A program made the translations under genes and the position numbers. Below, piece after piece: positions 13,582 to 34,740 of a stretch of 64,000 nt of DNA. The stretch is taken from the NCBI GenBank assembly GCA_943789365.1, contig CALSTV010000001.1, positions 186,001 through 250,000 on the forward strand, written 5' to 3'. The notes under the pieces were generated by a model. It made no database searches. It saw nothing but the letters and a program-made list of their open reading frames with translations, and was not told the DNA's origin. The stretch's first letter is position 1. Every line of letters begins with the position of its first letter. The DNA comes from an uncultured Flavobacteriaceae bacterium. Its GTDB lineage: Bacteria; Bacteroidota; Bacteroidia; Flavobacteriales; Flavobacteriaceae.

Positions 13582-14433
13582 TCAATTTAATTCAAACTTT
13601 GGTATTGTACTTTCAATTAAACTTCTGCTAGCCCCTAAAGAAGTTTTTTGAGGGTTAAGATAAGTCGTCAAAGTATTAAACACCTTCAAACCACTTCCAA
13701 CATGTGTACCTCTTAATTCATTTTCTAAAAGATCTAACCCAAACAAATCATTTGCTACACCCAACATACTAGGAGAATTACTAACGCTAGTACTCTCTCG
13801 ATTTACTGAAAAAAAAGATGATAATTTCACAAAAATAATATTATCTCCAAACTCGCTTATCTTTGCACCTGATAAATTATCAATCCTATTTGAAACATCC
13901 ATTAAATAAGCTATTTGTTGTTCTTGTATTTGTGAATTATCAAAGATGTTATCCGTCATTGTTCCAAAAAACGAACTCCCTAAATTAGTGAGGTTTTCTG
14001 TAGCATCAGTACCAATTCCTAAATCCCAATGAATAGCTGCACTTGCAAGTGCTTCATCACTTGTTCCATCAAACCATTTGACTTCTCCTGTTTTATTATT
14101 TTTAATCCAATCATCTGCTTTAGCTCCATCAGGATCTATTTGACTAACCCAATTATTCCCCATTGACATATACGGTGAATGGTATTGTCCCGCAGGATCC
14201 GTAGTCAACCACCTATTAATTCTAGAATCATAAAGCCTCAACTGAAACGCCACCTTCCCGGTCTCATTATCTAACTCCTGCCCTTGGTAGTTATAACGAT
14301 AATCTCCAACAACATTCCGATTAGGCATTTGCATCCCCCCTGAAAAGTAATCTAACGCATTTTTTTTCTGCCTTTGACCACTTTTCCTAAATACTACCTC
14401 TAAAAAATTTGTATTTATTTTTTTGCACCCCAT
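13582..14433 (-). CDS. Orphan Rhs C-terminal tip E (core end plus unknown effector domain)
   Basis: The 283-residue frame lacks the long YD-repeat body. Residues 1-30 are a leader (MGCKKINTNFLEVVFRK...) shared only with the other displaced tip at 21507. Residues about 30-105 are the conserved Rhs core end (GGMQMPNRNV, YQGQELDNETGKVAFQLRLY, INRWLTTDPAG, DPDG). The rest is a unique 180-residue domain I do not recognise. No dedicated immunity gene follows; a TA pair does. A weak TATATTTA box lies just before the ATG. It may be a silent recombination donor rather than an expressed protein. Confidence 0.7.
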   Translation of the reverse strand: MGCKKINTNFLEVVFRKSGQRQKKNALDYFSGGMQMPNRNVVGDYRYNYQGQELDNETGKVAFQLRLYDSRINRWLTTDPAGQYHSPYMSMGNNWVSQIDPDGAKADDWIKNNKTGEVKWFDGTSDEALASAAIHWDLGIGTDATENLTNLGSSFFGTMTDNIFDNSQIQEQQIAYLMDVSNRIDNLSGAKISEFGDNIIFVKLSSFFSVNRESTSVSNSPSMLGVANDLFGLDLLENELRGTHVGSGLKVFNTLTTYLNPQKTSLGASRSLIESTIPKFELN

Positions 14434-14508
14434 AACTTCGTAAATATAATAAATTTATCTTAACATTTATTTATGTCGTTTATCTATATACCCCCCGACA
14501 CCTGCCTC

Positions 14509-15002
14509 GCTATTGTAACATAAACTAGGTTATAATACTTTTTTGCAACACTTTCTTTTGTAAACATCACGACTCCATAAAAAAGATAGTTATAACCAAC
14601 TTTATGTTAAATACTCCCGTTACACGCCATACTTCCAGCCGCTTGTCTAAAAAAGTAGTTCGTAGAATGGTCATTTTAAAAGAGTACGCAAACCTGCCGC
14701 AGCACCAGCCCCTTTTACGTACGCTTTTAAAACGTTCATTTCGTTATTCTATACAATGACATTTTTAAAACTGAAGATTTGGGGGCTGGCTATGCGGAAG
14801 GTAATCTTCAGTTCTTAAAATGCTAGGCTAAGTGCCGATTGAGCGTCAGAGTATGAGTAAGTCGTGTTGTGAGTTCTAACGCCAATTTAGAAGAACTGTG
14901 CGGCTATTTTACATAATTTTCATTATAACTACAGCAGCAGGATTTTACTTTGCAAGAGGGGTGTAATTTGCTGTATTATAATGCTAATTATGTTAATATA
15001 GC
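14509..15002. mobile_element. 494-bp structured non-coding element, copy 1 (MITE-like)
   Basis: The element is bounded by imperfect ~30-bp terminal inverted repeats, GCTATnnTAACATAA...TTATAATAC at 14509-14538 and its reverse complement at 14973-15002. A second copy of identical length (22487-22980) has unrelated flanking bases, which defines the ends. Inside is a further inverted pair TAACATAAAnnnGGTTATAA, a TTTTAAAAG/CTTTTAAAA pair and a long stem with arms at 14760-14779 and 14803-14822. It has no open frame of note. It sits between an orphan tip and the recombinase module, and could be a MITE, an attachment-site/origin region or a structured RNA. The remaining gene-free stretch to 15182 holds a TTTGGTTAT/ATAACCAAA inverted repeat (15059-15067, 15116-15124). 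Confidence 0.7.
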
Positions 15003-15182
15003 TTTGGCTCCCGCGACGTAGCTTCAGCGAAGTTGTGGTGGAGTTTTTGGTGTTATTCTTTGGTTATTTAATCTTGGATAGAGATACAAACGATTTAGCA
15101 ACTAACAGTGATGGGATAACCAAAAACTTCTGGCGGCTGCGGGGGTATGTAGTCCAGTTTTTTAAGGACAGAAGTCCACTAT

Positions 15183-15211
15183 AAAAAACCCCGAACCTAT
15201 TATGATTCGGG
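15183..15211 (-). terminator. Intrinsic terminator after the RelE-like toxin
   Basis: On the minus strand a CCCGAA...TTCGGG stem is followed by a run of T residues (15188-15183), six bases beyond the toxin stop. Confidence 0.8.
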
Positions 15212-15217
15212 AGCTAT

Positions 15218-15562
15218 TTAATTTCTTTTTTTGATTTTATCAGGATGCATATCTGTTGCAAAAAAATCTGTTATGTATACTTTTTGAACAACTTCATCTA
15301 CAAAATAAATAATCTTTATTGTTTTTCGTTTTGTTATATGGTAAACCAAAAAACGATGTTCTTTATTAAGGTATGCTAAATTTCCTTCTTTACTTCCTTG
15401 ATAAGGGTTTTTCTCTAAAGACATTGCCAATTCTAAAATGGCATCCGATTTACGACCGGCACTTTTTACACCGTGTGTTTGGTATAGATTAGATAATAAC
15501 TCCCAATAATATTGCTCAGCTTTGGAAGTAATCTCTACTAAATAGCTTGTTGTTTCTTCCAA
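15218..15562 (-). CDS. RelE/ParE-type toxin carried by recombinase module 1
   Basis: The 114-residue protein has YLVEITSKAEQYYWELLSNL at the N-terminus and ending strands EHRFLVYHITKRKTIKIIYF and VYITDFFATDMHPDK. The latter matches the RelE/ParE fold, with C-terminal F-F-x-T-x-x-x-P. It overlaps the upstream antitoxin by 25 bp. Placed inside the mobile module, it would stabilise the module by addiction (inference). The copy 2 module lacks it. Confidence 0.75.
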   Translation of the reverse strand: MEETTSYLVEITSKAEQYYWELLSNLYQTHGVKSAGRKSDAILELAMSLEKNPYQGSKEGNLAYLNKEHRFLVYHITKRKTIKIIYFVDEVVQKVYITDFFATDMHPDKIKKRN

Positions 15563-15780
15563 TTTTCTACTACATTTTTAAATTCATTAATAGATCTTGT
15601 TTCTCCTCTTTCGATAGACTTTAAAGATGCTTCTGCTCTTTGTTGTAAATCGGAGGTACTGGTAGAGAAAAAGGCATCCGTTTCTTCTTCAAAAATGTTT
15701 TTAATTTTAGATAAAATACTTTCCTTTTGAGTTTTTAAAAGTAATTGCATTAATTCAAGCTTTGTTGTTTCGATGTCCAT
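15538..15780 (-). CDS. Antitoxin of the module-borne TA pair
   Basis: The 80-residue helical acidic protein (LELMQLLLKTQKESILSKIK..SIERGETRSINEFKNVVENW) has the usual C-terminal toxin-binding region of RelB/ParD-like Bacteroidota antitoxins. It precedes and overlaps its toxin, and lies 40 bp downstream of the RadC-like gene on the same strand. Confidence 0.7.
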   Translation of the reverse strand: MDIETTKLELMQLLLKTQKESILSKIKNIFEEETDAFFSTSTSDLQQRAEASLKSIERGETRSINEFKNVVENWKKQQAI

Positions 15781-15820
15781 AACTAACGTATTTCTTACAA
15801 ATTTAGGGTTTTATTATAAG

Positions 15821-16450
15821 TTATTCCACTTTTAAGCGATTGATTACCGTTTTGGTAAGTCCTGTATATTCAATTATCATTTCTACAGGAACACCTTTTT
15901 TCTTCATTTCTCTTGCTATTTCCTTGGCTTTTTTGTTTTCTCCAACTTGTTCTCCTTTTTCCTGCGCAGCCTTTTCATAACGCCTTTTAATTTCAAAGGC
16001 AGGAACATATTTAAGACTTTTTTCCAGTTCTTCCAACAAGCCTGTATTTACAAAACTGTAATAGGAGTTTTCGGTAATGATTAGATGATCTAATACAGGT
16101 ACGTTCATAATTCTACCTACTTGTATCATATGATCTGTGATGTCTTTGTCGGCTGTTGAGGGTGTGAGCCTTCCCGAGGGGTGGTTGTGGACTAAGACTA
16201 ATTTTACAGCGCGTTTTTGCAAAGGAATGCTAAAGACTTCCATAGGTTCTACTATGGTGGCTCTAAAGCTGCCCATGCTTACCAGTTCGATGTTTAGGAT
16301 TTTATGGGCGTTGTCTAAGCTGATTGTCCAAAAGTGTTCACGTCCCCGATCTGTTTTTTGTTCTCGCAGTAAGATGCGTTGCATCACTCCGTAAATATCA
16401 TCGGCATTTTCTATTTTAATCTGATTTTTTGCTGTCAATTTTATGTTCAT
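15821..16450 (-). CDS. RadC/JAB-domain protein with extra C-terminal helical tail
   Basis: The 209-residue protein has the JAMM metalloprotease-like motif VHNHPSGRLTPSTADKDIT near residues 92-110, as in RadC-family proteins often carried by integrative elements. It lacks the RadC N-terminal HhH region. The C-terminal ~50 residues (KAKEIAREMKKKGVPVEMII, then EYTGLT) form a helical tail otherwise common at the end of Rpn/PD-(D/E)XK transposase-like proteins. It sits just downstream of the recombinase pair in module 1 and is missing from module 2. Confidence 0.8.
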   Translation of the reverse strand: MNIKLTAKNQIKIENADDIYGVMQRILLREQKTDRGREHFWTISLDNAHKILNIELVSMGSFRATIVEPMEVFSIPLQKRAVKLVLVHNHPSGRLTPSTADKDITDHMIQVGRIMNVPVLDHLIITENSYYSFVNTGLLEELEKSLKYVPAFEIKRRYEKAAQEKGEQVGENKKAKEIAREMKKKGVPVEMIIEYTGLTKTVINRLKVE

Positions 16451-16481
16451 TTTGAATCTAGTGTAAAGTTACTATTTGTTT

Positions 16482-17438
16482 TTAATTTAAAGGATGGTAT
16501 TTATTGATGTCTTCTTGTAAGTCTTCTAAGTCATTTATCAAATACGATTCGGTGGAGCTTACATATCGATGCCCTGCTCTGTATTGTACTTCTCGTAGGT
16601 TGTATTGTTTGAGCCAACCAGTGATGACACTTGACCGGATTTGTTGGAGGTTTTCTATTTTTTTGTTTTGTTTCCGGAGTTGTTCTATTAATTTCTGTAA
16701 GGTGTTTTGTAGCTCTAAACTTGTTCCTGTACTGACTAAAAATAAATCGGTTTCCTTTTTGGTTTCTGCGAGTATTGCTTGCCTCACCTGCAAGGTGTAT
16801 TCCATAAAATCTAAGATCTGATGGGCTTCTAATTTTAACGTTCTTTCGTTGCTTTTTCTTCCTCTAGCAATAAAGATTTTTCCGTCTCGTAATTTTATGT
16901 CCTGGACTAATAAATTTTTTATTTCACTTGTATTTAAGCCTTGATAAACCAACAAACTTACAATGACTTCATTTCTTTGTTTTGCTAAACTCTCGCTTGG
17001 TGAGGATTTGTAATCAAAATATATTTTCTCTAATTCTGTACGGCTTAAAATGTTGTGCAATATTTTTCTTTTTACACCTTTGGTTTCTATGTTTAAAACA
17101 GGATTTTCTTTTACAATTCCTAGTTCATTTAAATACGTATAATATCTCTTTAAACTTGATAAAACTGCTTGGATCGTAATTTGTTTTACTTGCTTTCTTT
17201 TACTTTGTATGTAAAACGTAATGTCATTATAACTGACGGCTTCTTCTATGATATTTTCTTTAGCTAGCCATTTTTTAAAACGAGACACATCACTTAAATA
17301 ACGTTCACTACTTTTTATACTGTATCCTTTTCCTAGTAAATATTGTATAAAATTTGGTTGGTCTTTTTCATTTTGTAACCTTTGTAAAAGTTCTAAATCC
17401 GCATCATGTGGCGAGTCGCCACGGACATGTTTTCTCAT
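16482..17438 (-). CDS. Tyrosine recombinase 2 (module 1), catalytically atypical
   Basis: The 318-residue protein has an N-terminal SAM-like core-binding domain and a C-terminal tyrosine-recombinase domain. The box I Arg, normally in G-L-R-x-x-E, is Asn (YQGLNTSEI). The His of H-x-L-R is Gln (QQIRSSVIT). The second Arg, GHRYVSSTESYL and the terminal Tyr remain. The same changes occur in the module 2 paralogue, so they are ancestral, not decay. It is placed 14 bp after recombinase 1 and probably acts as an accessory or heterodimer partner. Confidence 0.8.
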   Translation of the reverse strand: MRKHVRGDSPHDADLELLQRLQNEKDQPNFIQYLLGKGYSIKSSERYLSDVSRFKKWLAKENIIEEAVSYNDITFYIQSKRKQVKQITIQAVLSSLKRYYTYLNELGIVKENPVLNIETKGVKRKILHNILSRTELEKIYFDYKSSPSESLAKQRNEVIVSLLVYQGLNTSEIKNLLVQDIKLRDGKIFIARGRKSNERTLKLEAHQILDFMEYTLQVRQAILAETKKETDLFLVSTGTSLELQNTLQKLIEQLRKQNKKIENLQQIRSSVITGWLKQYNLREVQYRAGHRYVSSTESYLINDLEDLQEDINKYHPLN

Positions 17439-17452
17439 TGCTTTTTAATTTA

Positions 17453-18388
17453 TTAGCTGTCGGGCTTCCCGACTAGGTGAGTATATATCTGCGTAGATTC
17501 TAAAGAAGTATGTCCTAAAAAACGACTTATATTTTCTAGTGGCATTCCATTGACCAATAAATGTGTAGCGATGCTATGCCGTAAGACATGCAAGCGTACA
17601 TTCTTTTCTTGTAATGTAATATCGTCTGTTCTTTGTTGTAAGATTTTTAAGCGTATTGCCATGCTTTGGGCTGTTAGTCTGTTGCCTCGCTCTCCTATAA
17701 AAAAGGCGGTGGCATTGCCACTTTTGGTAAGTAGCGGACGGGCATCAAAGACATAGTCTTGTAAATAGTTGAGATTGGTTTTGTTAAAGGGAATTATTCT
17801 TTCTTTATTGGCTTTTCCTTTTCTTACGTGGAGCGTGGCGCTGTCCCAGTTGATATCACTTAAGTCTAAATGGTAGCCTTCGTTTCTTCTAAGTCCGCAG
17901 CTGTAAAATATGGTTAGGATGGCTCTGTCTCTTGCGTTTAAGGGTGCCAATCTTCCGTGTTCATTATAGCCATAGGTGGCTTTGTATAGTAATTGTATTT
18001 CTTGTGGAGTAAGCGTCTCTACTTCGCTGTCGTCGCACGACTCCCAATCAATTTGTAACATAGGGAGGATTATCCTCCCACTCTGACGTAAATAGTCTGT
18101 GAATTTATATAAGGCTTGTAAATGTTTGTTTAAACTTCCGTTACTTAATGCACCACCTTTTCTATCGTTACTTCGCAATTTTAAATTTTCGTAATGGTCT
18201 TTGATAAGTTGTGGTGTGAGTTGCTTTATATCGCTGTGCCCGTGGCTCTCTAAAAAGTAAAACAGTTCTCTAATGTGATTGGGTAGGTTGTAAACGGTAC
18301 TTTCTGCATAGCCTAAAATATCTAACCATTCTCTAAAGGATTTCTCTATATAAATAAAAGATTGGTTTTTAAGCTGTAGTTTTCTCAT
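17453..18388 (-). CDS. Tyrosine recombinase 1 (module 1), canonical active site
   Basis: The 311-residue XerC/D-like integrase has Arg I in SCGLRRNEGYHL, Lys in RKGKANKER, HVLRHSIATHLL for His/Arg II, and FLGHTSLESTQIYTHL containing His/Trp-position and the nucleophile Tyr. The first ~175 residues are almost identical to the module 2 paralogue. Then a block of about 50 residues around Arg I differs strongly, followed again by near identity, a mosaic typical of recombination. It is likely the catalytic integrase/transposase of the module. Confidence 0.88.
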   Translation of the reverse strand: MRKLQLKNQSFIYIEKSFREWLDILGYAESTVYNLPNHIRELFYFLESHGHSDIKQLTPQLIKDHYENLKLRSNDRKGGALSNGSLNKHLQALYKFTDYLRQSGRIILPMLQIDWESCDDSEVETLTPQEIQLLYKATYGYNEHGRLAPLNARDRAILTIFYSCGLRRNEGYHLDLSDINWDSATLHVRKGKANKERIIPFNKTNLNYLQDYVFDARPLLTKSGNATAFFIGERGNRLTAQSMAIRLKILQQRTDDITLQEKNVRLHVLRHSIATHLLVNGMPLENISRFLGHTSLESTQIYTHLVGKPDS

Positions 18389-18454
18389 AATTTGCGTGTC
18401 GAGGCTCTCGACTTTTTTATAGCACTTATACTTTTTCGTGAACTTTGCGAACCA

Positions 18455-20064
18455 CTAACTTAATTCGCTAATTATCTTTTCTTTAGGTGGTTCATTTTTG
18501 GTTTGAACCACTTTTGAACCATTGAACCGCTTTAACTCTTTTAAAGTCTTGTCCAATACGCTGTTAATCTCCTTTTGTAGTTGGTTGTATTCTGTGGTGC
18601 TTACGATTTCGTAATGGTAACCAGTTGCTTTTTTACCTTTCACTTTCTTAATGTAGTAGCCTGTGAGCAATTGTAGGTTGTAGCGTTTTTGGTTACTTGG
18701 GTTAATACGAAGAACTTGTCGTATTTCTCGATTGGTAAACTGACCGGAGCCCGAATTGTCTTTATTTTTATCTCTCTGTTTTAGGTAGCTTTTAACAGCT
18801 TCCAGATAGTTTCTACAACTTCCAGTGAGTTCATCACTTTTTCTTAGCAAGACTTCTTTCAATAAATTATTCGCATTTTCTATATCTTCAAGAGTAACTT
18901 CTATAAATTCTTCTCCTGTCTGGGTGTCGACCTTCGACTGTCTCTGCCACTGGCAGTAAAAGGTAACTGCTTCTATAAATTGTAAATAGTGGCTGTTGGT
19001 TCGTCTTGGTTTAAAGACTGCCGATGGGAGGCTAAGCCTCTCTGCAAATGGATTTATAATTTTTATGGGTTTTAATATTCTCTGCACATTTTGTAAAAAC
19101 TCTTGTGCTTCTCTTTCTTCATAAATATTAATCTCTCCAGCAGATATTTTTCTTTGGTACACCATTATTTTTTCGTCTTGTATTTCTCCCTCGTCTAAAT
19201 AAATTAAAAAACTACGGTTGGCGTTGTCTTCGTAAATATGTTCTTTGGTGGTACAACCTGCTACACAGACCGGACCTTCAACAATTAAATATTTGGTTTG
19301 CGTTTCGCCTTTGGTATTTTTACTAGCAATAGTTTTTACGATACGTTTTTTAGTCTGTAATTCTCGTAAAGGATAGAGTGCATTTTCTGCGCCGTCTAAA
19401 TCTTCAATAAGTATGACTTTGTTTTTAAGCTCTTGTTTTCCAAAATAGTAAAAGGCGTTTTCGCTTAATGTTGTTATACTTACTCGTTCTTCTTCTGGAA
19501 TGAGTTCGCCTACTTTTTCTTGTAAATGGGTTTTTCCTGTTCCGCTACTTCCTAAACCTATAACGTGTAAAGGCTGTTCTCGTTTTCTGCTTGTAAATAT
19601 GATGTACATTAACAGTCGGTTGATTTCTTCTCCTATTACTCCACTTTTTCCAATGAGTTCATTCGTCTTTTCTAAAAGATTAGAATCTTTCAAAAATGCC
19701 TGTGCGGCTCGCAGCTCTTTTTCTGTAAGCTTTTTAACTTTGGGTGCAGCAGCCTGCTGCTGTTGCTTTAATTTATCTAAGCGATACGCTTCAAGCGCTT
19801 CCGTTAACTCGCTTAAACTTGCGGCAATAACACTTGTACCAATTTCTCTGCAATCTTTCTTATAAATTTCTCTAATTGTGTGTCGTTATATAAATCTAAG
19901 TTATGTCTTACAGGTGGACGGCTACTATTATTTAATTCCACCTTTAAGGTGGCTCGCATTCTGTCCAAGCCTTCTAATTTGACACCTCCTAAAACTGTAA
20001 GCTGTAGTATTTCATTCTCGTAGATTAATTGGTCTTGGTTTGCTATTTGAAGTTTTTTTGACAT
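18455..20064 (-). pseudogene. AAA ATPase/helicase-like protein (module 1), frameshifted copy
   Basis: The gene is base-for-base almost the same as the intact copy at 25154-26764, except that one G of a GGG run (CCC on the plus strand) near 19838-19841 is missing. The frame therefore breaks after about 75 residues, at LVQVLLPQV. The 412-residue remainder (18455-19693) still encodes the P-loop GLGSSGTGKTHLQ and could in theory restart at TTG 19693, but loss of the N-terminal domain is expected. Module 1 may depend on the module 2 protein in trans. Confidence 0.85.
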
Positions 20065-20096
20065 TGTTAAAAAAAATAAAATGTAATTATCAGACA

Positions 20097-20129
20097 CAAA
20101 TATATCTTTTATTTACAAATCAAACAAAA
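20097..20129 (-). promoter_or_regulatory. Promoter for the module 1 ATPase-recombinase operon
   Basis: On the minus strand TTTTG (20129-20125) and TATATTTG (20104-20097) are separated by 20 bp, an excellent fit to the Bacteroidota -33/-7 elements. Transcription would start about 20-30 bp before ATG 20064, which also rules out the GTG further upstream as the start codon. Confidence 0.7.
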
Positions 20130-20214
20130 CTATCAGGGACGTATTTCACTTTTAATTACTTATTTTTACTTTTGTAAGTTATTATTAGTAGCATTTGTAA
20201 CTATTTAGGACATT

Positions 20215-20547
20215 ATGGACACAGGTAAAATTATAGAAACATTACGTAAAAAACACAATTGGTCTCAAGGAGAACTTGCAGATAAAACAAACGTTTCTCG
20301 TGTAATGATTGGTAAATACGAACGTAGTGAAGCGACCCCATCTATTGAAGCTGCTAAAAGCATTGCGGATGCTTTTCAGGTGTCTTTAGATTATTTAGTG
20401 GGAGAAGGTGTGAATGCTGCTTTTGATAAAAAAACAGTACAACGATTACAAGATATTCAGAACCTTGATAAGGAAACTCAAAATGTATTGTTTCGATTGA
20501 TTGATACCATGATTAGAGACACAAAAGCTAAAAAAGCATATTCTTAA
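20215..20547 (+). CDS. XRE-family HTH regulator (module 1)
   Basis: The 110-residue protein has a Cro/C1-type HTH (WSQGELADKTNVSRVMIGKY) at residues 16-60. The C-terminal helix (VQRLQDIQNLDKETQNVLFR) is likely for dimerisation. It is divergent from the ATPase operon, sharing a 117-bp control region, and probably represses both directions. It is identical in protein sequence to the module 2 copy; I saw one silent difference (20339). Confidence 0.85.
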   Translation: MDTGKIIETLRKKHNWSQGELADKTNVSRVMIGKYERSEATPSIEAAKSIADAFQVSLDYLVGEGVNAAFDKKTVQRLQDIQNLDKETQNVLFRLIDTMIRDTKAKKAYS

Positions 20548-20577
20548 AACTTGTCTGCCCTAGTAAAACAAAGACAC

Positions 20578-20612
20578 AAAAAAACTACTCCAATTGCTTG
20601 AAGTAGCTTTTT
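20578..20612 (+). terminator. Terminator after the module 1 XRE gene
   Basis: An A-rich flank, stem CTACT/AGTAG (20585-20589, 20602-20606) and a following CTTTTT form a short, probably bidirectional terminator 31 bp after the stop. The same sequence follows the module 2 copy. Confidence 0.6.
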
Positions 20613-20751
20613 ATTAGTTTTCTTAGACCGTCTTTCTTAATTCCCTTATAAAGGACAGATTTTCGTATAAACATCTCGTAGGGGGCACGGGTACAAAAAC
20701 TAGCGCAGTAAAAAAACTCCTACATTTCTGTAAAAGCTTTTCTTTATTGGC

Positions 20752-21495
20752 TTAATGTTCGCCCCAATCTTCTTTTACTTGAGCATATGATTTTTTAACA
20801 ATTGGAATCATTGACTCATCAACCTCTTTTAAATTATTTAATACTTTATTATATAGTTCTTGTTTATTTTCTGGATGAGGACCATCAAAAAAGAAAACCC
20901 AAAAACTAGCTATTTCTAATTTGTTTTTTTTATTTAAAAGGCTAAAAAACAACTGTGAATCTGATCTATAAAATTTTTGAAGAGAATGTTGTACAACTCC
21001 TACATTGTCCGATTGCCAATGACCATTGACACCTATGGAAATTATTTTTTTTAAATAATCCTTTTCTGAAATATTTAATGGGACATAATTATGAATATGA
21101 TTATAACTAGAATATAAAGGACTACCCTTAAATTCATTCTCGTTATGCGTATCATCATATCCATAAAGCTTTTTAAAATTTTCAAAATTATCGGGAAACA
21201 TTTTAAAAAACAATACCTCACTTAAAGAATCATTGGTCTTTTCAAATTGATTAAAATAATGCTTTAAATATCTTGCACTATCTTGTAATGTTTTAACTTC
21301 TTTATAATTTAAGGTGTAGTCTAGTGTCGATTGTTCCTCTTCATTATCAATTCCTTCATTTATAGAATCTTTGACCTCAATTTGGAGAATACCTAAAGAA
21401 TCTATAGCTTTTTCTTTGGCTATTTTTTTATGTTCTGTCTTGCAACTAAAAATAAATAACCATAAAGACAATTGTAAAATTATCACCACTCTCAT
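20752..21495 (-). CDS. Lipoprotein, candidate immunity protein for tip D
   Basis: The 247-residue protein has a lipoprotein signal peptide (VVIILQLSLWLFIFSC, lipobox Cys near residue 17), followed by a Lys/Glu-rich linker and a helical domain with no motif I recognise. It begins 11 bp after the stop of tip D, whose predicted activity is on the cell wall. A lipid-anchored periplasmic protein would be the right kind of immunity partner. This pairing is inferred from position only. Confidence 0.6.
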   Translation of the reverse strand: MRVVIILQLSLWLFIFSCKTEHKKIAKEKAIDSLGILQIEVKDSINEGIDNEEEQSTLDYTLNYKEVKTLQDSARYLKHYFNQFEKTNDSLSEVLFFKMFPDNFENFKKLYGYDDTHNENEFKGSPLYSSYNHIHNYVPLNISEKDYLKKIISIGVNGHWQSDNVGVVQHSLQKFYRSDSQLFFSLLNKKNKLEIASFWVFFFDGPHPENKQELYNKVLNNLKEVDESMIPIVKKSYAQVKEDWGEH

Positions 21496-21506
21496 ACCTT
21501 AATATT

Positions 21507-27247: not shown

Positions 27248-27277
27248 AACTTGTCTGCCCTAGTAAAACAAAGACAC

Positions 27278-27312: not shown

Positions 27313-27442
27313 ATTAGTTTTCTTAGACCGTCTTTCTTAATTCCCTTATAAAGGACAGATTTTCGTATAAGCATCTCGTAGGGGGCACAGATTCGTGCGG
27401 GAGCTTTACTTTTTAATTATTCCTCGTGTGGGAGCTGGGTAT

Positions 27443-27832
27443 TTAGCAATATTTCCATAATAAAAAATTAAATATTATTATGCCTAACAAAATTACATAG
27501 TACGTTGTACTTAATTTTTTAACCTCTTTTTCTGACATCTTCTTAAACACTTTCAAAATATTAGAAATTTTCCTCTCAATTAAAAGATAATTTAATCCAA
27601 TAATCGTAACAGCTATTATCAGATATATCACTTTGCCGTTAAATACGACATCATACTTATTAGAAATATAAACTTCTAATTTATAAAGAGGATAAAAACT
27701 TAAAAAGATTATCTTTCCTGCCATAAAATATGTTGCATAGTAGACATGTAAATCATCATCTTTATATATGCTTTTCGATGAACGATATGATTTTAAATAG
27801 CTATAGTTATATACTTTTTTTAATAAATTCAT
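27443..27832 (-). CDS. Membrane protein, candidate immunity protein for tip C
   Basis: The 129-residue protein has about three hydrophobic segments: near residues 30-50, 64-84 and 105-125 (the last YYVILLGIIIFNFLLW). It begins 2 bp after the tip C stop, the position of an immunity gene. Tip C itself has hydrophobic, membrane-seeking stretches, so an inner-membrane immunity protein would fit. No family recognised. Confidence 0.55.
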   Translation of the reverse strand: MNLLKKVYNYSYLKSYRSSKSIYKDDDLHVYYATYFMAGKIIFLSFYPLYKLEVYISNKYDVVFNGKVIYLIIAVTIIGLNYLLIERKISNILKVFKKMSEKEVKKLSTTYYVILLGIIIFNFLLWKYC

Positions 27833-27834
27833 TT

Positions 27835-28683
27835 TTAATCATTTAAAAATCCAAACATTGATTTTTCATTAAATGAATCATTTTCATATAAAGATGGTAG
27901 CCAATGTGATAAATGATAACCTTTAATATCTGATTGGTCTACTTTATACCCTAATATTGGACCAGCATAAGGAATGGAACCTACTACATAGGAAACAGTT
28001 GACCTAACTAAGTATCTCTGATCTCCAGTCATAACGGAAAGCCTATACCCATCTCCTAGTGAGATTACATTTAATATTCCTGCTACTCTAGATACTGATT
28101 TGATCTTATTGGCATTTTTCAAAAACTTTTTACCACTAACATTTTGATTCCCATTTAGGCTCCCGTTAGATCTATACAAATTTTTAAGTTGAATATTTCC
28201 TTTTGAAAGTTGTTTCATGCTCAATATTTTTGAATTTCTTACCAAATCTTTAGCAATCTGATTTGTTGTTCCTATTGTCAATCCCGATATTAAATTAGCC
28301 TGTGAAAATGCCTTACTAAAATCGAATATTGGAAATTCTTGTTTGCTTAAAGAAATTTCATCCATATAATTAACCCAACCTCCAATATCACGTACAGAAA
28401 TAGATTCCAGACCGGGTACATCTCCTGTAACAACTAATGAAGTATCATAACCTGGTGGACAATCATCACAATCCATTCCTCCATTAGGATCAACTCTACT
28501 TACCCAATTATTTCCCATCGCTAAATAAGGACTTGCATATTGTCTATAAGGATCCGTAGTCAACCACCTATTAATTCTAGAATCATACAATCTAAGCTGA
28601 AACGCTTCCTTACCAGTTTCAGGGTCTTTTTCTTGTCCTTGATACGCATAGCGGTAATCTCCCTGAACATTTCTATTGGGCAT
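27835..28683 (-). CDS. Orphan Rhs tip C (core end plus hydrophobic effector domain)
   Basis: The 282-residue frame starts at MPNRNVQGDYRYAYQGQ, inside the conserved core end. It continues through RLYDSRINRWLTTDPYRQYA to SRVDPNGG near residue 70. The following ~210 residues are unique, with a hydrophobic Gly/Ser-rich C-terminal part (VSYVVGSIPYAGPILGYKVD). The start lies 24 bp after the immunity-like gene of tip B, so it can be translated from the same mRNA, but without a secretion signal. Confidence 0.7.
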   Translation of the reverse strand: MPNRNVQGDYRYAYQGQEKDPETGKEAFQLRLYDSRINRWLTTDPYRQYASPYLAMGNNWVSRVDPNGGMDCDDCPPGYDTSLVVTGDVPGLESISVRDIGGWVNYMDEISLSKQEFPIFDFSKAFSQANLISGLTIGTTNQIAKDLVRNSKILSMKQLSKGNIQLKNLYRSNGSLNGNQNVSGKKFLKNANKIKSVSRVAGILNVISLGDGYRLSVMTGDQRYLVRSTVSYVVGSIPYAGPILGYKVDQSDIKGYHLSHWLPSLYENDSFNEKSMFGFLND

Positions 28684-28707
28684 TTCTTTAATTTTAAGAC
28701 CTTTCTT

Positions 28708-28929
28708 TTACCATACAAAACCTTCTCCAAAATATTCATGGTAAAGAATTAATAAGCCCATGGTAAGAAAAACAAAAATAATAGATACTCTTCTTAGAAT
28801 AGAATAACCACCGTCACCAGTAGTAAAACTCATCATTTCTTTAAAAAAGGGGTTTTTTATTAAGTCTCTAATAAGAAAAGCTGCTATACATAAAAATGAA
28901 ATAGCTATTAATGTGTTCCTAGTTTTCAT
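28708..28929 (-). CDS. Two-helix membrane protein, candidate immunity for tip B
   Basis: The 73-residue protein has two transmembrane segments (residues 7-22 and 45-63) and ends LLILYHEYFGEGFVW. That end is identical to the 72-residue paralogue at 29828, while the first half differs. It follows tip B by 28 bp. Confidence 0.6.
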   Translation of the reverse strand: MKTRNTLIAISFLCIAAFLIRDLIKNPFFKEMMSFTTGDGGYSILRRVSIIFVFLTMGLLILYHEYFGEGFVW

Positions 28930-28957
28930 AATTCAATTATGGTTTTCAATATTGAAA

Positions 28958-29803
28958 CTATTTATCATTCTTTATAGAGTTGGAAATAACTGTATTCTTA
29001 ATTCCAAATCCTTTATCAAGAATTTGAAAAGATAAATTATCTATTTTGTCCAAATGATGTAATTTTTTTAATCCCACAGAAACTGATTCGCCAACAAAAA
29101 AGGAAGTCGCATTCACCCCAATAGCAGACCAATTTTTATTATAAATATCTACAGGCAAGCTCATTGCTAAACCTACTCCTGAAATAAACTTTCCTGCTGC
29201 CATCATAGGAATTCCTGCTTCGGCACCTACACCTGTAAGCGTAGCACCGTAACCTACTATTAAAATACCATCTCCTGTGTCTTGATAATATTGAGCAGTA
29301 TGAGTATATGCTTCTAAAGACCAGCGACTAATATCATCATAGGTAACATTTTTTGAATTCAATGGATTTGGGTTCCTACGTTCACTAGCCCAAGAATTAT
29401 AAGCCTCTTGATGGCTAGAAAAATTACTCCCATATTTTTGATTCCAATCGTTTAAAGTTCCATTAAAACTACTTTCCCACCCAACAGGTGTATTAAAACT
29501 CACTTCAGAAACCCAATTTCTTCTGCTTCCACTTCCATGAACGATAACTTCTGGAAGCATTCCTCCATCATATTCATCGCAACACTCGGTATCGGTTCCT
29601 CCATTAGGATCAACTCTACTTACCCAATTATTCCCCATCGCTAAATAAGGACTTGCATATTGTCTATAAGGATCCGTAGTCAACCATCTGTTAATACGAG
29701 AATCATACAATCTAAGCTGAAACGCCACCTTCCCGGTCTCATTATCTAACTCCTGTCCTTGGTAGTTATAGCGGTAATCTCCCTGAACATTTCTATTAGG
29801 CAT
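28958..29803 (-). CDS. Orphan Rhs tip B, near-duplicate of the full-length protein's own tip
   Basis: The 281-residue frame begins MPNRNVQGDYRYNYQGQ and matches the C-terminal part of the full-length Rhs protein almost exactly. About 600 bp (29111-29712 versus 30223-30824) appear identical. The last ~50 residues then differ at many positions, starting after SAIGVNATS. The domain has a Gly-rich hydrophobic core (GILIVGYGATLTGVGAEAG). It is a displaced second version with altered C-terminus and its own immunity gene. Confidence 0.75.
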   Translation of the reverse strand: MPNRNVQGDYRYNYQGQELDNETGKVAFQLRLYDSRINRWLTTDPYRQYASPYLAMGNNWVSRVDPNGGTDTECCDEYDGGMLPEVIVHGSGSRRNWVSEVSFNTPVGWESSFNGTLNDWNQKYGSNFSSHQEAYNSWASERRNPNPLNSKNVTYDDISRWSLEAYTHTAQYYQDTGDGILIVGYGATLTGVGAEAGIPMMAAGKFISGVGLAMSLPVDIYNKNWSAIGVNATSFFVGESVSVGLKKLHHLDKIDNLSFQILDKGFGIKNTVISNSIKNDK

Positions 29804-29827
29804 TTCTTTAATTTTAGGACCTTTCTT

Positions 29828-30046
29828 TTACCACACAAAACCTTCTCCAAAATATTCATGATAAAGGATTAGTAAGCCCATTGATAATACACCCAAAATA
29901 ATTATTACAGTTCTTAATATCGAATAACCTCTATCCCCTGGGTTATCAATCATTCTTTTGTAAAAAGGATTTTTTATTAAATCAATTATGAAGTAAACAC
30001 CAATACTGATTAATCCAATTGCAATTAATGTATTTTTAAGCTCCAT
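29828..30046 (-). CDS. Two-helix membrane protein, candidate immunity for the full-length Rhs protein
   Basis: The 72-residue protein has two transmembrane segments (about 7-24 and 44-62) and ends LLILYHEYFGEGFVW. It lies 23 bp after the Rhs stop. It is a paralogue of the protein at 28708; the N-terminal halves vary in parallel with the C-terminal ends of the paired tips. Confidence 0.6.
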   Translation of the reverse strand: MELKNTLIAIGLISIGVYFIIDLIKNPFYKRMIDNPGDRGYSILRTVIIILGVLSMGLLILYHEYFGEGFVW

Positions 30047-30069
30047 ACATCTTATGTTTCTTCTTAAAA

Positions 30070-33000
30070 TTATTCTTCATCATTGATAGAACGTTGTATA
30101 TAAGCGTTTTTTAAGCCTACTCCACCATCAAGTATTTGAAATGAAAGATCATCTATTTTATCCAAATGATGTAATTTCTCTAAACCCCGAGTAGCTATTC
30201 TTCCAGTAATATACGATGTCACATTCACCCCAATAGCAGACCAATTTTTATTATAAATATCTACAGGCAAGCTCATTGCTAAACCTACTCCTGAAATAAA
30301 CTTTCCTGCTGCCATCATAGGAATTCCTGCTTCGGCACCTACACCTGTAAGCGTAGCACCGTAACCTACTATTAAAATACCATCTCCTGTGTCTTGATAA
30401 TATTGAGCAGTATGAGTATATGCTTCTAAAGACCAGCGACTAATATCATCATAGGTAACATTTTTTGAATTCAATGGATTTGGGTTCCTACGTTCACTAG
30501 CCCAAGAATTATAAGCCTCTTGATGGCTAGAAAAATTACTCCCATATTTTTGATTCCAATCGTTTAAAGTTCCATTAAAACTACTTTCCCACCCAACAGG
30601 TGTATTAAAACTCACTTCAGAAACCCAATTTCTTCTGCTTCCACTTCCATGAACGATAACTTCTGGAAGCATTCCTCCATCATATTCATCGCAACACTCG
30701 GTATCGGTTCCTCCATTAGGATCAACTCTACTTACCCAATTATTCCCCATCGCTAAATAAGGACTTGCATATTGTCTATAAGGATCCGTAGTCAACCATC
30801 TGTTAATACGAGAATCATACAACCTAAGTTGAAAAGCCACCTTCCCGGTCTCAGGATCGGTTTCAGCAAATTGCCCCTGATATCCGTAACGATAATCTCC
30901 AACAACATTCCGATTAGGCATTTGCATCCCCCCGGGGTAATAATCTGCAAATAGCGATGGTGTGGGGTTGTCTTTGGTTACGACAGCTCTTACATTTCCT
31001 AGATGGTCAGTAAGTTCATAGTTGGTAGCACCGTTTTTGTGGTATACCCCTAAACGAGAGGCACCGTAGATAGGGAGTTCTAGTTGCGTTTGCTCGCTGT
31101 AGATCGCCATCACGCTTCCGGCAACATCACGTACATAATAGTGCGTACTGCTTAAAACTCCATTTGTGTATACTTCTTTGCGCACTCTGAATCCTTTGTC
31201 GTTATAATAAAATCTAACGAAAGGTACATCATTTTTTTGAACTTCAGAAACCAAACCACTCGCTGTATATACATATTTTATACCCTCTGCCCGATTCTCA
31301 CTGAGCTGACCAATATTGTTGTATAGATAAGTGTTTGGGGCCTGGTTTTTTAAATCGGCACTGCGATTTGGGTTGCTGTTGTCGTTCGCATCGCTAATAT
31401 AATTTAACTGGTTGGGTTTTTGTGAATCGTAATGGTAGCTAAAATCATCCATGGCGTTGTCTCCGTTAGCATCTGTATAGCCATTGCGTTTGAGGGCTTG
31501 GAGGTTTCCATTGGCGTCGTATTCCAATCCTGTAACGCTGTAATCTTGGGCTTCAGTTGCGTTTTGTGTTGTTTCTCCTTCGTTTGCTATTCTTGCCGTA
31601 AAAGTAACTCCATTTGAAGCTACGGCATGAAAACCAGGTTTTAGTACAACAGCTGTTTTTGCAATAACGGTTTCGGAGGTAGTTACCACGGCACTTCTTT
31701 CTTCTACATCGCTTATGGTAAAGCTGTCTTGCAATTCGTGGTTCCATCCAGCACCTTCCAACCAGTTGTTTTTGTTGTATTTATAATAATAGGTATTGAC
31801 TCCAAATCCCTCCGCCTTTCTGGTACTCCAGGTCATGGCTTTGATATTGCCGTTGTACTGGTCAACACCGTTGCTGTTGACCAAATCGAAATCTGTGTTT
31901 CTTTGGTAATCACCTTGATAGTAGTCGAGCACCATACCAAAAGCATCATCGGTATCGCCACCGGGGTCTTTGTCTCCGTCTAATTCAGGATGGTTAATGG
32001 CTTTTAGCTGTCCTGCCAAATTGTAGACATAGTCAATTCCCTGTAGTTTGTTGCCGCTTCGGTCTTTGAGTTCCAAACGTTTTAAGGCACCAGTTTCGTA
32101 ATAGTCATAAGAAGCATGTGTTATATAAATATTTCCATCCTCTGAAGTTTGTACCTGTATCAACTCCCCACTTACTTCGTGGTAGGAATAGTGGTGTACA
32201 AAGCGTTCTCCGGGACTGTATCGCTGAAAGTCTACTTTGGTAACGGCACTGGTAACGGGGTCGTATTCGTAGTCGATGGTTTTTACGCCCAAACCGGCAA
32301 TGTTTTGTACGAGCCATTCCACACGACCGTAAATATCGTAACTGTACCAGGTAGTGGTCTGGGCATTTTGAGTTTTGGCTACATTACCGGCTACAAATTG
32401 CTGCCGCCCGTAATGGGCGCTATGGTCGGAATCTAAAACGGTTGCTAAGCCCGCAGTGTCTTCAAGGTCATAAACGGTTTCTTGCTGTTCTTCGGGTTTT
32501 ATAGTTCCTGCAAAAGCGAGCACATCGGAGTCTAAACCCGAAAAATCACCCACAGCCACCCCACTTTCAACGGGGCGTGCGAGTGCGTCGTAGTTGGTAT
32601 AGGAAAATTCGCCTGCAAGTGCCTGTTTGCTATTTTGCGAAAAGCGTATTTGTCCGTCTTTTCGGTATTTAAAAGTTGCCGAGCCTTGGTCTGGACTGGT
32701 AGTCGAGAGCAGTTGCCCAAGCGAGTTGTATTCAAAAGTTGTGGCGCTGCTATGGTTGAGTTCCGCTGCGTTTTTAAATCCGCTTAAAGCGCTGCTGTCA
32801 AAACCTATGGGTTGGGTGGTTTTGGTGAGGCGCCCGGCTTTGTCGTAGTAGTTGAGTGCGTAGTCGTAATAGTTTACCTTATAGCGCACGCCAATATTTT
32901 CTAAAAAAGCAGGCTCCACAGAATTATCTTGCTCATTTATGAGCGCATAGGCGGGAAAGTTTATATTGCTATGACCTATGTATTCAATTCTATAGAAGCC

Positions 33001-34740
33001 TGCCAATAGGTTGTTGTTGCTTGCCAGTACGGTTTCTGTTTTAAGATTGTATATTTTAAAATCTGAGGCGGTGGCTCCCACAAACGAAAGGGTGTTGTCA
33101 CAGCCGGTCGGAATATGAATGTCTATATATTTTTGAGGCCCTATTAAAGACAGTACCTCATATTGCTGGTCGCCTCCAGAGCGTGCACTTGCTAGGGTTT
33201 TGCCATCGGTATCGGTAAATACTACGGTTTCTATACCGTGTATGTCTTGGTTGATGGTTTTGGTGGCTTTTAAATAATCATTTACCTCCAAAGGCTCGAT
33301 TTCATAAATTCCTAAAACCAAGGGATAAGATCTGGAAGGTGTCTTTCTTCTGGAAAAAGAGTTCAGTCTAAACAACTTACTGGGTTCTCCACTCGATGGT
33401 CTATACAAATCATAGATATAAGAAATCACTAATTTGTCAGAAGAAATATACATTAAGGTTGAAAATTCTTCATTTGTTTCCAAATCGGTTAGTTCTAAAT
33501 TAAATAAATCAATATTAGAATTATCTAGATCATCCTTTAAATTTTTGATAAGTTCTTTAGAAGGAAAATACCCCAAACCAAAAACATATTGCATTTCCTG
33601 AGCAGCTGGGAAGGTATAGGAAAAACCTTGTTTCCAAGAGTCACCAATTCCATCGCCATTGGTATCTATTTTATTACCTCCTATGGTTTTTAAGACGGTT
33701 CCTGGATTTAAGCTGCTGTAAATGGTTCTTGAATAGGGTCGGTTTGTGATGTCCTGTAAATCATCGTTTGTATTATTTGGACTGTATTGTCTGCCCAAAT
33801 CGTATGAATTGGAGCTGCTGCTTACTTCGGTAGGGTTTTCCAGATTCGAATTATCAAAATCTGACAAGCCATAGTTACCGCCGTTCGTATTCTTTATAAA
33901 ATCTTCTTTGTAGGCAAAAGCTTCATCTGTGTTCGTATTGGTATCAGAAATGGGAGCACTTAAGGTTTGTATGGCAGGCCTTCCCTGGATGTCATATAGC
34001 GTCTGATGCGCCCATATGCGCTGATTCTTAAAATCAAGTGTTTGAGTTTGGGTGCGTTTTCCAAGGCCATCTAAATAATTTTTATTTTGAGCACGAATGA
34101 TTCCCTCAACGTCAAAACTTCGAGATCGAATCCAGTTTCTATCTTCATAAGGCTCAGTAGGAAAAACACAGCCAGAAATTGGCCCTTGCTCACCGATACA
34201 ATTGTCATCTCTATTTATCACCCATATTTTTCCTACGTCATTAGGTGCTTCGCAAGCATATATAGGTATTTGCGTTAGAATGGGGAAAGGGGAATCTCCT
34301 TCGAATAGTACTATTTCATCGGATTCATATTCTCCAAAACCATCTTCGTCCAGGTCGGGATACCAGGCCTGCAGACAGGCTTTGCTTTGTGTAATTTGTA
34401 TAGTTCCATAAAACGAATTGTATAAATCTCGTATTGTCAAAGTACCAGATCTAGTTGTGTCCAATGTGCTTTCATCTATTGAAATCACAAAAACAAACCG
34501 GTCGTTCACTACCCTTTTTGTATAAGATAACCAGGAAGGATATCCAGTTAAAATAAGATCTTCAAGAGTACAGGAATCTGAAATATCGTACAGATCTAAC
34601 TCTAATACATTGGCCTCCGCTAATACGTCATAATACAAGTCAAGATCTCCTGTATTAAAATCATAACATTGTCCAAAACATCCAATACTTCCCAATATTG
34701 AAAGGCATAGCACCATTCTCATCTTTATTAATATTTTCAT
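30070..34740 (-). CDS. Full-length secreted Rhs/YD-repeat protein with toxin tip A
   Basis: The 1556-residue protein has a Sec signal peptide (MVLCLSILGSIGCFGQ), then a BACON-like beta domain (about 30-115) and a Ca-binding-like YPDLDEDGFG near 130. A DUF6443-type region (WIRSRSFDVEGIIRAQNK) follows near 205, then a long YD-repeat barrel (about 640-1290). The Rhs core ends RINRWLTTDPYRQYA...SRVDPNGG near 1340. The last ~210 residues are the variable tip. The signal peptide points to Sec export and probably T9SS or surface display, not T6SS. It lies 4 bp after a broken partner gene. Confidence 0.88.
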   Translation of the reverse strand: MKILIKMRMVLCLSILGSIGCFGQCYDFNTGDLDLYYDVLAEANVLELDLYDISDSCTLEDLILTGYPSWLSYTKRVVNDRFVFVISIDESTLDTTRSGTLTIRDLYNSFYGTIQITQSKACLQAWYPDLDEDGFGEYESDEIVLFEGDSPFPILTQIPIYACEAPNDVGKIWVINRDDNCIGEQGPISGCVFPTEPYEDRNWIRSRSFDVEGIIRAQNKNYLDGLGKRTQTQTLDFKNQRIWAHQTLYDIQGRPAIQTLSAPISDTNTNTDEAFAYKEDFIKNTNGGNYGLSDFDNSNLENPTEVSSSSNSYDLGRQYSPNNTNDDLQDITNRPYSRTIYSSLNPGTVLKTIGGNKIDTNGDGIGDSWKQGFSYTFPAAQEMQYVFGLGYFPSKELIKNLKDDLDNSNIDLFNLELTDLETNEEFSTLMYISSDKLVISYIYDLYRPSSGEPSKLFRLNSFSRRKTPSRSYPLVLGIYEIEPLEVNDYLKATKTINQDIHGIETVVFTDTDGKTLASARSGGDQQYEVLSLIGPQKYIDIHIPTGCDNTLSFVGATASDFKIYNLKTETVLASNNNLLAGFYRIEYIGHSNINFPAYALINEQDNSVEPAFLENIGVRYKVNYYDYALNYYDKAGRLTKTTQPIGFDSSALSGFKNAAELNHSSATTFEYNSLGQLLSTTSPDQGSATFKYRKDGQIRFSQNSKQALAGEFSYTNYDALARPVESGVAVGDFSGLDSDVLAFAGTIKPEEQQETVYDLEDTAGLATVLDSDHSAHYGRQQFVAGNVAKTQNAQTTTWYSYDIYGRVEWLVQNIAGLGVKTIDYEYDPVTSAVTKVDFQRYSPGERFVHHYSYHEVSGELIQVQTSEDGNIYITHASYDYYETGALKRLELKDRSGNKLQGIDYVYNLAGQLKAINHPELDGDKDPGGDTDDAFGMVLDYYQGDYQRNTDFDLVNSNGVDQYNGNIKAMTWSTRKAEGFGVNTYYYKYNKNNWLEGAGWNHELQDSFTISDVEERSAVVTTSETVIAKTAVVLKPGFHAVASNGVTFTARIANEGETTQNATEAQDYSVTGLEYDANGNLQALKRNGYTDANGDNAMDDFSYHYDSQKPNQLNYISDANDNSNPNRSADLKNQAPNTYLYNNIGQLSENRAEGIKYVYTASGLVSEVQKNDVPFVRFYYNDKGFRVRKEVYTNGVLSSTHYYVRDVAGSVMAIYSEQTQLELPIYGASRLGVYHKNGATNYELTDHLGNVRAVVTKDNPTPSLFADYYPGGMQMPNRNVVGDYRYGYQGQFAETDPETGKVAFQLRLYDSRINRWLTTDPYRQYASPYLAMGNNWVSRVDPNGGTDTECCDEYDGGMLPEVIVHGSGSRRNWVSEVSFNTPVGWESSFNGTLNDWNQKYGSNFSSHQEAYNSWASERRNPNPLNSKNVTYDDISRWSLEAYTHTAQYYQDTGDGILIVGYGATLTGVGAEAGIPMMAAGKFISGVGLAMSLPVDIYNKNWSAIGVNVTSYITGRIATRGLEKLHHLDKIDDLSFQILDGGVGLKNAYIQRSINDEE

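What the first reader, a model, noticed from the sequence alone, without database searches (positions are those of the whole stretch)
13582..34740. Rhs toxin-tip reservoir interleaved with two tyrosine-recombinase modules
Seen: one full-length secreted Rhs protein is followed by four displaced core-end-plus-tip frames (28958, 27835, 21507, 13582), three of them with a small downstream candidate immunity gene. Two near-identical modules (XRE regulator, ATPase, two tyrosine recombinases) interrupt the series, and each is followed by the same 494-bp structured element and then an orphan tip with a shared leader. Known: orphan Rhs tips recombine onto the main gene through the conserved core. Inference: the recombinase modules may have delivered or may mobilise tip-immunity cassettes, a mobile tip-exchange system that I have not seen described.
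Basis: partly seen in the sequence, partly recalled or inferred. Interest (0 to 1): 0.85.

Follow-up and report, generated by a model that had tools for sequence, protein, structure and literature searches.

The report
Mobile elements that swap toxin tips
The window holds two copies of a widespread bacterial mobile element that appears to insert itself at one exact spot inside a large secreted toxin gene, giving the gene a new toxin ending while pushing the old ending downstream.

Summary
Two modules (XRE regulator, MCM-like helicase, XerD-like recombinase, degenerate partner) separate Rhs toxin tips. The unit is larger: [core end + tip + immunity]-[module]-[~520-bp non-coding element]-[short end], bounded on both sides by one point in the Rhs core, the codons of YYP(F/G)G. 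The "shared leader" of two orphan tips is the element's right end.

Of 99 distinct related modules, mostly Bacteroidota, 80 have a same-strand Rhs core within 8 kb upstream (16: held stretch ends; 3: none) and 51 downstream (45; 3); opposite strand 0. Junctions bound the crossover to five bases (TTTGG, GGCGG) in two loci and agree elsewhere. In a closed genome two backbones differ at 1 base in 5.9 kb, carry different tips, and stop matching there. One 7.9-kb unit sits on two Rhs genes of this genome. Recombinase lineage follows core subtype.

Best reading: integrative elements that deliver Rhs tips in frame. Excision and transfer are inferred. Ten full-text searches found no description; Jackson 2009 proposed a tip-carrying circle but knew no integrase with Rhs.

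The parts
30070..34740 (-). Main full-length Rhs gene (1556 aa, secretion signal by eye); target gene
   Evidence: RHS_repeat over its cut-off and DUF6443 just under; Rhs_assc_core
30928..30936 (-). Left junction (attL-like) inside the Rhs core, codons for P-G-G of YYPGGM
   Evidence: same position as the crossover bounded in other loci
22317..30933 (-). Element A as it stands: core end + tip1, immunity, tip1', immunity, tip2, immunity, module A, non-coding element, right end. The extra tips probably come from later duplication (28476-29805 vs 29596-30923, 87%)
29828..30046 (-). Candidate immunity gene of main tip (72 aa)
28958..29803 (-). Orphan tip1' (tip part 89.7% identical to main tip)
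28708..28929 (-). Candidate immunity gene (73 aa)
27835..28683 (-). Orphan tip2, next to module A; likely original cargo of element A (inference)
27443..27832 (-). Candidate immunity gene (129 aa)
26915..27247 (+). Module A XRE regulator, divergent from the rest
   Evidence: same protein as in module B, which has an HTH_3 hit
25154..26797 (-). Module A MCM-like AAA+ helicase
   Evidence: no Pfam or NCBIfam hit; model pLDDT 84; best PDB folds are MCM helicases
24128..25087 (-). Module A TR1, XerD-like tyrosine recombinase with complete catalytic set
23155..24138 (-). Module A TR2, degenerate tyrosine recombinase partner
22466..22986 (-). Non-coding element of A (~520 bp) with dif-like inverted-repeat sites
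   Evidence: its sister copy aligned
22311..22345 (-). Right end of A and junction into the older tip3 core
14341..22316 (-). Element B (7976 bp): core end + tip3, immunity, module B, RadC, TA pair, non-coding element, right end
21507..22316 (-). Tip3 with core end (DUF5675 domain); cargo of element B, now orphan
20752..21495 (-). Candidate immunity gene of tip3 (247 aa)
20215..20547 (+). Module B XRE regulator
18455..20097 (-). Module B helicase, reading frame broken near its start
17453..18388 (-). Module B TR1
16482..17438 (-). Module B TR2
15821..16450 (-). RadC-like JAB protein, accessory
15218..15780 (-). Toxin-antitoxin-like pair, accessory (judged by eye)
   Evidence: no Pfam hit
14485..15008 (-). 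Non-coding element of B
14338..14372 (-). Right end of B and junction into tip4 core
13582..14340 (-). Tip4 with core end, oldest displaced tip of the window
13036..13550 (-). ParE toxin and partner after tip4

Best explanation
The modules belong to a family of integrative elements whose attachment site lies inside the Rhs reading frame. The element is [3' end of Rhs core + toxin tip + immunity gene]-[XRE, MCM-like helicase, XerD-like TR1, degenerate TR2]-[accessory genes]-[~520-bp non-coding element]-[short AT-rich end]. SHOWN by comparison: both borders of the unit lie at the same codons (4-5 of the conserved YYP(F/G)G); most main genes read through the left border in frame; displaced tips start at the right border. 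INFERRED: TR1, probably with TR2, recombines a circular form with that site; a new tip and its immunity are fused in frame to the resident Rhs gene; the old tip is pushed downstream as an orphan; repeated insertion at the regenerated site builds the series seen in the window; excision would restore the former toxin; the helicase and the dif-like inverted-repeat element serve replication or processing of the circle.
For: (1) Association: apart from the window, loci were fetched by helicase or non-coding element, not by Rhs. Of 99 distinct close-clade modules a same-strand Rhs core lies within 8 kb upstream in 80 (held stretch ends first 16, none 3) and downstream in 51 (45, 3); opposite strand 0 and 0. 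(2) Borders: seven junction triplets compared. Common windows: TTTGG (L066), GGCGG (L085/L089), GGCGGGATGG (L090), an 18-base window containing TTTGG (L059), a wide one in L056; this genome's triplet, out of register in the script, shares CCTTTTGGACTT by eye. (3) Closed genome (L171): backbones differ at 1 base between 6347 and 12210, then diverge from 12211, right after TATTATCCTTTTGG; their tips differ. (4) A 7,890-bp stretch with tip and module, 99.9% identical, sits on two Rhs genes of this genome. (5) 40 of 53 first cores with 450 bp or more upstream are in frame for 140 aa or more, against 3 of 69 cores with a module upstream. (6) End motif A5+..GC before 32 of 69 and 2 of 53. (7) Core subtype changes 5 times on the TR1 tree; 300 shuffles gave 20-30. 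(8) TR1 R, K, H, R, H, Y invariant in 41 of 41. (9) Some tips match toxin families: TseH, GH-E, AHH, CdiA_C_tRNase, Ntox50.
Against: No excision, circle or transfer was observed. Terminal overlaps in 2 of 49 whole contigs (L108, 141 bp; L148, 59 bp) fit tandem arrays as well as circles. 12 of 53 first cores, window tip1' and tip2 among them, are not in frame with a long upstream ORF, and 37 of 69 cores behind a module lack the end motif as I wrote it. Tip1' and tip2 of the window lack a right end, so not every orphan is explained. The non-coding element was found in 53 of 87 downstream regions. In the nine loci one has no Rhs core and one has a core only downstream. L171 (same backbone, different tips) needs a cargo-exchange step, possibly homologous recombination. 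Several identical tandem arrays come from draft assemblies. No natural uninterrupted version of an occupied site was found. In L022 the right end coincides with a contig end. Core subtype could partly follow host lineage.
Confidence: 0.84

Rival explanations
1. Tips are exchanged by RecA-type homologous recombination through the conserved core, and the recombinase modules are passengers that use the Rhs locus as an insertion hotspot without carrying tips.
For: Jackson 2009 proposes core-homology exchange (passages); Koskiniemi 2014 showed it in Salmonella (seen only as cited in the passages). In the window tip1' and tip2 have no right end and look like a tandem duplication. In L171 the same backbone carries different tips.
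Against: Homologous recombination would not put the breakpoint at the same codons in cores of different sequence, nor give an end motif, nor tie recombinase lineage to core subtype. The 7.9-kb stretch shared by two Rhs genes includes the tip. I noticed nothing att-like between immunity gene and XRE, but made no systematic search.
Confidence: 0.1
2. The recombinases are resident tools of the Rhs locus that switch tips within one cell (programmed excision), not a mobile element.
For: Excision between left and right borders would put the older tip back in frame. Tandem arrays with regenerated sites occur in several loci.
Against: The helicase, accessory TA pairs and patchy distribution (24 of 397 family genomes, 12 of 395 phylum genomes, with different profiles) look like a mobile element. 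The same unit occurs on two Rhs genes. Two divergent element lineages (helicases 59%, TR1 46% identical) coexist in this genome.
Confidence: 0.06

Closest known systems
Rhs C-terminal displacement (Jackson 2009, PMC2935791; passages seen)
   Same: Main gene followed by core-end-plus-tip orphans; a tip-carrying circle was proposed
   Different: [quoted passage not shown] Here the unit encodes recombinases and the crossover lies at fixed codons
rAID clusters of Bacteroidales (PMC12247911; passages seen)
   Same: Tyrosine recombinase linked to interbacterial toxin-immunity genes and conserved intergenic motifs
   Different: rAID are described as arrays of orphan immunity genes with a tyrosine recombinase; here each unit carries toxin tip, immunity candidate, helicase and two recombinases and targets the toxin gene
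Integrons
   Same: XerC/D-like recombinase, newest cassette first, older ones displaced
   Different: TR1 is below the integron integrase cut-off (90.4 of 265 bits); each unit carries its own recombinases; the site is a coding motif
Integrase genes near Rhs genes in bee gut bacteria (Steele 2017, PMC5727410; passages seen) and integrase/transposase genes in CDI orphan arrays (PMC4927057; passages seen)
   Same: Integrase-like genes beside toxin arrays, role in exchange suggested
   Different: No unit, site or mechanism is defined in the passages seen; those genes were not compared here
Prophages that replace the 3' end of a host gene on insertion, such as e14 in icd (recalled, no call)
   Same: Site-specific insertion inside a protein gene with restored reading frame
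   Different: Those restore nearly the same protein end; here the new end is a different toxin and is the cargo

Membership tests
Tyrosine-recombinase integrative element | Integrase with full catalytic set | tested here: met
   TR1 R174 K199 H274 R277 H300 Y309 invariant in 41 of 41
Tyrosine-recombinase integrative element | Defined attachment junctions with a short common core | tested here: met
   Of seven junction triplets, four give windows of 5-18 bases, one a wide window, two no automatic window (own genome out of register, 12 bases by eye; L171 has different cargo)
Tyrosine-recombinase integrative element | Excised circular form | not testable with these tools
   No reads; 2 of 49 whole contigs with terminal overlaps fit circle or tandem array
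Rhs C-terminal displacement locus | One full-length gene followed by orphan core-end-plus-tip fragments | tested here: met
Integron | IntI-type integrase | tested here: not met
   TIGR02249 90.4 bits against cut-off 265 for TR1
Integron | Cassettes without an integrase of their own | tested here: not met
   Units carry TR1 and TR2
rAID cluster | Array of orphan immunity genes beside a tyrosine recombinase | tested here: not met
   Units carry toxin tips
Integrative conjugative element | Relaxase and conjugation genes | tested here: not met
   No such Pfam hit among the 20 window proteins scanned; units of other genomes were not scanned whole
RIT elements and Tn554 (features recalled) | Three tyrosine recombinases (RIT) or TnpA/B/C (Tn554) | tested here: not met
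   Two recombinases, one degenerate, plus helicase
Phage | Relatives in a viral collection | tested here: not met
   0 of 26 pattern matches in viral contigs encode a relative of the helicase

The most novel reading that the evidence does not exclude
These are replicating episomes dedicated to toxin renewal. A helicase-replicated circle carries a tip-immunity cassette, inserts at one codon pair of a polymorphic toxin gene, arms the cell with a new toxin while keeping the old immunity, and can leave again to restore the old toxin. Related units with a primase-helicase fusion would do the same for non-Rhs toxin genes, so several toxin backbones have evolved landing sites for such elements.
Probability: 0.4. 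Interest if true: 0.93.

Novelty: categorically new. Interest (0 to 1): 0.88.

Why it matters
How Rhs and similar toxins acquire new tips without losing the old ones has been open since C-terminal displacement was described. [quoted passage not shown] Kirchberger 2017 saw integron-like displacement of effectors but no evidence of an integrase (passages). This family supplies the recombinase, the site and the cargo in one unit, and makes the question testable with a harmless reporter. It also explains why many orphan tips begin at one codon, and gives a marker for finding toxin-immunity pairs.

Tried and rejected
Rfam on window 11000-36500 with E up to 1: 0 matches, so the non-coding element is not a known RNA family. 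Viral contigs: 26 stretches matched a pattern, 0 encode a relative. Orphan tip of L021 in the genus: found only in its own genome, 1 of 6, so no natural uninterrupted site. Tip C of the closed genome in 299 genomes of its genus: 5 matches, its own included; the best other (L187) is a cassette without helicase or recombinases and without a full Rhs gene in 19 kb. Contig C2 does not continue the end of C1. PDB sequence search with the helicase profile: 0 hits. A tRNA target was rejected for the window: no tRNA gene found in it. A covariance model of the non-coding element was considered and not built; whether it acts as RNA or DNA is open.

Rows set aside: 141 modules were reduced to 123 distinct helicases; 24 divergent or partial ones were counted apart (at 8 kb: upstream core 16, held stretch ends 6, none 2; downstream 8, 14, 2). 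In one search, 4 of 165 tips were dropped as shorter than 60 aa. In one search, 99 downstream regions were cut out, of which 87 were long enough to be searched (count). In one search, 62 of 99 TR1 rows had a core subtype label. In one search, 30 of 83 first cores lay within 450 bp of the start of the held stretch. In one search, four loci fetched twice, incomplete tips and tips under 90 aa were left out.
Full report
WHAT IS THERE. On the minus strand the window reads: full-length Rhs gene (30070-34740), candidate immunity, orphan tip1', immunity, orphan tip2, immunity, module A, ~520-bp non-coding element, orphan tip3 (DUF5675), immunity, module B with RadC and a toxin-antitoxin-like pair, second copy of the non-coding element, orphan tip4, ParE pair. 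Modules are 90.0% identical over 4.2 kb and the non-coding element with tip start 90.2% over 885 columns. Module B's helicase gene is broken near its start.

THE GENOME ITSELF. A DNA search with the non-coding element and a protein search with the helicase found two further modules in the same genome, both right behind another Rhs gene with tip and small ORFs (L021, L022). Their helicases are 59% identical to that of module A and TR1 46%, while the non-coding element is 95% identical, so parts of these units have mixed. L021 and L022 share 7,890 bp at 99.9%, starting about 24 bp before the YYPFG codons of two different Rhs genes and including the tip; L022 stops at the end of its contig. L021 has the right end joined to a different core; L022 has it joined to the unit's own core. 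The main-gene, inter-unit and orphan junctions share CCTTTTGGACTT by eye; the script was out of register for this triplet. A search with the Rhs core model gave 23 core ends in the genome, so many Rhs cores carry no module.

OTHER GENOMES. A profile of two helicases hit 24 of 397 genomes of the family; a profile of 17 hit 12 of 395 genomes of the phylum. I annotated 109 loci with profiles built from the window and the first relatives. Among 99 distinct close-clade modules with a recombinase, a Rhs core end lies on the same strand within 8 kb upstream in 80, the held stretch ends first in 16, none in 3; downstream 51, 45 and 3; opposite strand 0 on either side. Nine further loci came from the phylum search: five have a core on both sides (L171, L173, L174, L175, L177), two upstream (L172; L178, where the downstream side was not held), one downstream only (L179), one none (L176).

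BORDERS. In tandem arrays the whole unit repeats, tip included (L056 99.6%, L059 99.1%, L063 99.9%, L066 98.6%). In L056, L059 and L063 the mismatches lie only in and next to the core at the unit ends (L066 not examined there). Comparing main-gene, inter-unit and last-orphan junctions in seven triplets bounds the crossover to TTTGG in L066, GGCGG in L085/L089, GGCGGGATGG in L090, an 18-base window containing TTTGG in L059 and a wide window in L056; the triplets of this genome (above) and L171 (different cargo) gave no automatic window. L171 belongs to a single-contig 5.43-Mb genome, so assembly error is unlikely: two backbones differ at one base between 6347 and 12210 and then at 44 positions in the next 234 bp, starting just after TATTATCCTTTTGG; their tips differ. 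Displaced tips often carry upstream a non-coding end such as AAAAAAACGCATAAAC-TACTATCC, and main genes carry coding sequence instead: the motif A5+ then GC occurs before 32 of 69 cores with a module upstream and 2 of 53 first cores. Among first cores with at least 450 bp of upstream sequence, 40 of 53 read in frame for 140 aa or more, 12 for under 50; among cores with a module upstream, 3 of 69 reach 140 aa and 57 are under 50.

CARGO. 161 tips of at least 60 aa fall into 134 clusters, 115 of them single; copies of a locus fetched twice are among the 161. Of 135 non-redundant tips scanned, a minority match Pfam (27 families, 25 listed, six members for M91 peptidase, two for DUF6973, one for each other listed family); matches include TseH, GH-E, Tox-PL-2, Amidase_2, Toxin-JAB1, AHH, CdiA_C_tRNase, WHH and Ntox50. 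Between tip and XRE/helicase a same-strand ORF of 50 aa or more was found in 109 of 114 cases, starting within 100 bp of the tip stop in 86; no shuffled control was run for this count, so it is only compatible with immunity genes.

MACHINERY. TR1 keeps R174, K199, H274, R277, H300, Y309 in 41 of 41 sequences; its nearest solved relative by sequence is XerD (1a0p, E 5e-42). In TR2 (92 sequences) the first catalytic arginine is kept at the aligned position in only 8, Gln stands for the box His in 82, while Arg is kept in 89, His in 88 and Tyr in 90, so it is probably a partner, not an independent recombinase. The helicase has no Pfam or NCBIfam match; its AlphaFold model (pLDDT 84) matches MCM helicases best (8s09, E 3e-10, TM about 0.4; 4r7z, TM 0.59 by target length). 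In a divergent relative the same domain is fused to a CHC2 zinc finger and Toprim domain, as in primases (L070). TR1 lineage follows core subtype: 5 changes on the tree, 20-30 (mean 25.3) in 300 label shuffles; two lineages with different core subtypes coexist in this genome, so host descent alone is not the cause.

THE NON-CODING ELEMENT. An iterated profile from the window copy matches 53 of the 87 downstream regions searched; in the nine best-scoring copies it ends 136-174 nt before the downstream core (from, whose regions run 60 nt past the core start). Its conserved ends are inverted pairs of sites like TTTACATAA-N6..8-TTATAATAC (17 sequences), which resemble a XerC/XerD dif site (dif recalled). 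A loose pattern of this kind occurs 99 times in 166 kb downstream of modules and 26 times in 250 kb upstream of helicases. Rfam has no match. A part of it also occurs behind L070, which lies beside another toxin-like gene, so it seems to belong to the element and not to Rhs. I take it for an origin or processing site; this is inference.

MECHANISM. The simplest account is insertion of a circle at the YYP(F/G)G codons by TR1 (with TR2), which fuses the carried tip in frame to the resident gene and leaves the old tip behind the right end as an orphan that keeps its immunity gene. Repeated insertion gives the series newest-to-oldest. In the window, element B (14341-22316) would have inserted first and displaced tip4; element A (22317-30933) followed and displaced tip3. 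Tip1' and tip2 lack a right end and look like duplications of a tip-immunity segment (87% over 1.34 kb), so homologous recombination probably also acts here. In L171 the same backbone carries two tips; how cargo changes is not known, though extra XRE pieces at the cargo border may mark recombination points.

LITERATURE. Ten full-text searches listed no paper that describes such a unit, judging by titles, abstract starts and the passages opened. Passages seen: Jackson 2009, Kirchberger 2017, Steele 2017, CDI islands PMC4927057, rAID PMC12247911, Ornithobacterium RHS arrays PMC13183296. No paper was read whole. The library holds open-licence papers only, so absence is not proof.

VERDICT. I call it categorically new because no known family tested here has this combination, while noting that site-specific insertion into a protein gene with frame restoration has precedents (recalled).

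Noticed in passing
L070:4118-20000; L072; L176: Related units with a CHC2-Toprim primase fused to the helicase (domains by Pfam in L070; L072 and L176 judged by eye) lie beside non-Rhs toxin-like genes. In L070 a tandem copy (99.9%) starts inside a toxin-like gene after a different N-terminus, suggesting the same logic on another backbone
   Followed up: partly
L187:14454-17194: Core-tip-immunity cassette with XRE and TA pair but no helicase or recombinases, outside a full Rhs gene: probably a decayed unit
   Followed up: partly
L188:15527-15754: XRE gene in two broken pieces behind an Rhs tip in the window's genome: possible trace of a lost unit
   Followed up: no
L021:11878-17698: The Rhs genes of this second occupied locus are split into several frames; L022 carries a long intact ORF with the same unit
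   Followed up: no
L023:4277-4578: Short stray fragments of the non-coding element in the window's genome; the surrounding genes were not examined
   Followed up: no
window 41128-42536: Repeat-rich region with 14- and 21-base spacing (43 overlapping copies reported)
   Followed up: no
L057 and L089: Helicase-region DNA 90.9% identical over 1.5 kb between Flavivirga aquatica and Salegentibacter, suggesting transfer between genera
   Followed up: no
L120, L118: Several orphan tips in a row without modules between them, as in window tip1' and tip2
   Followed up: no
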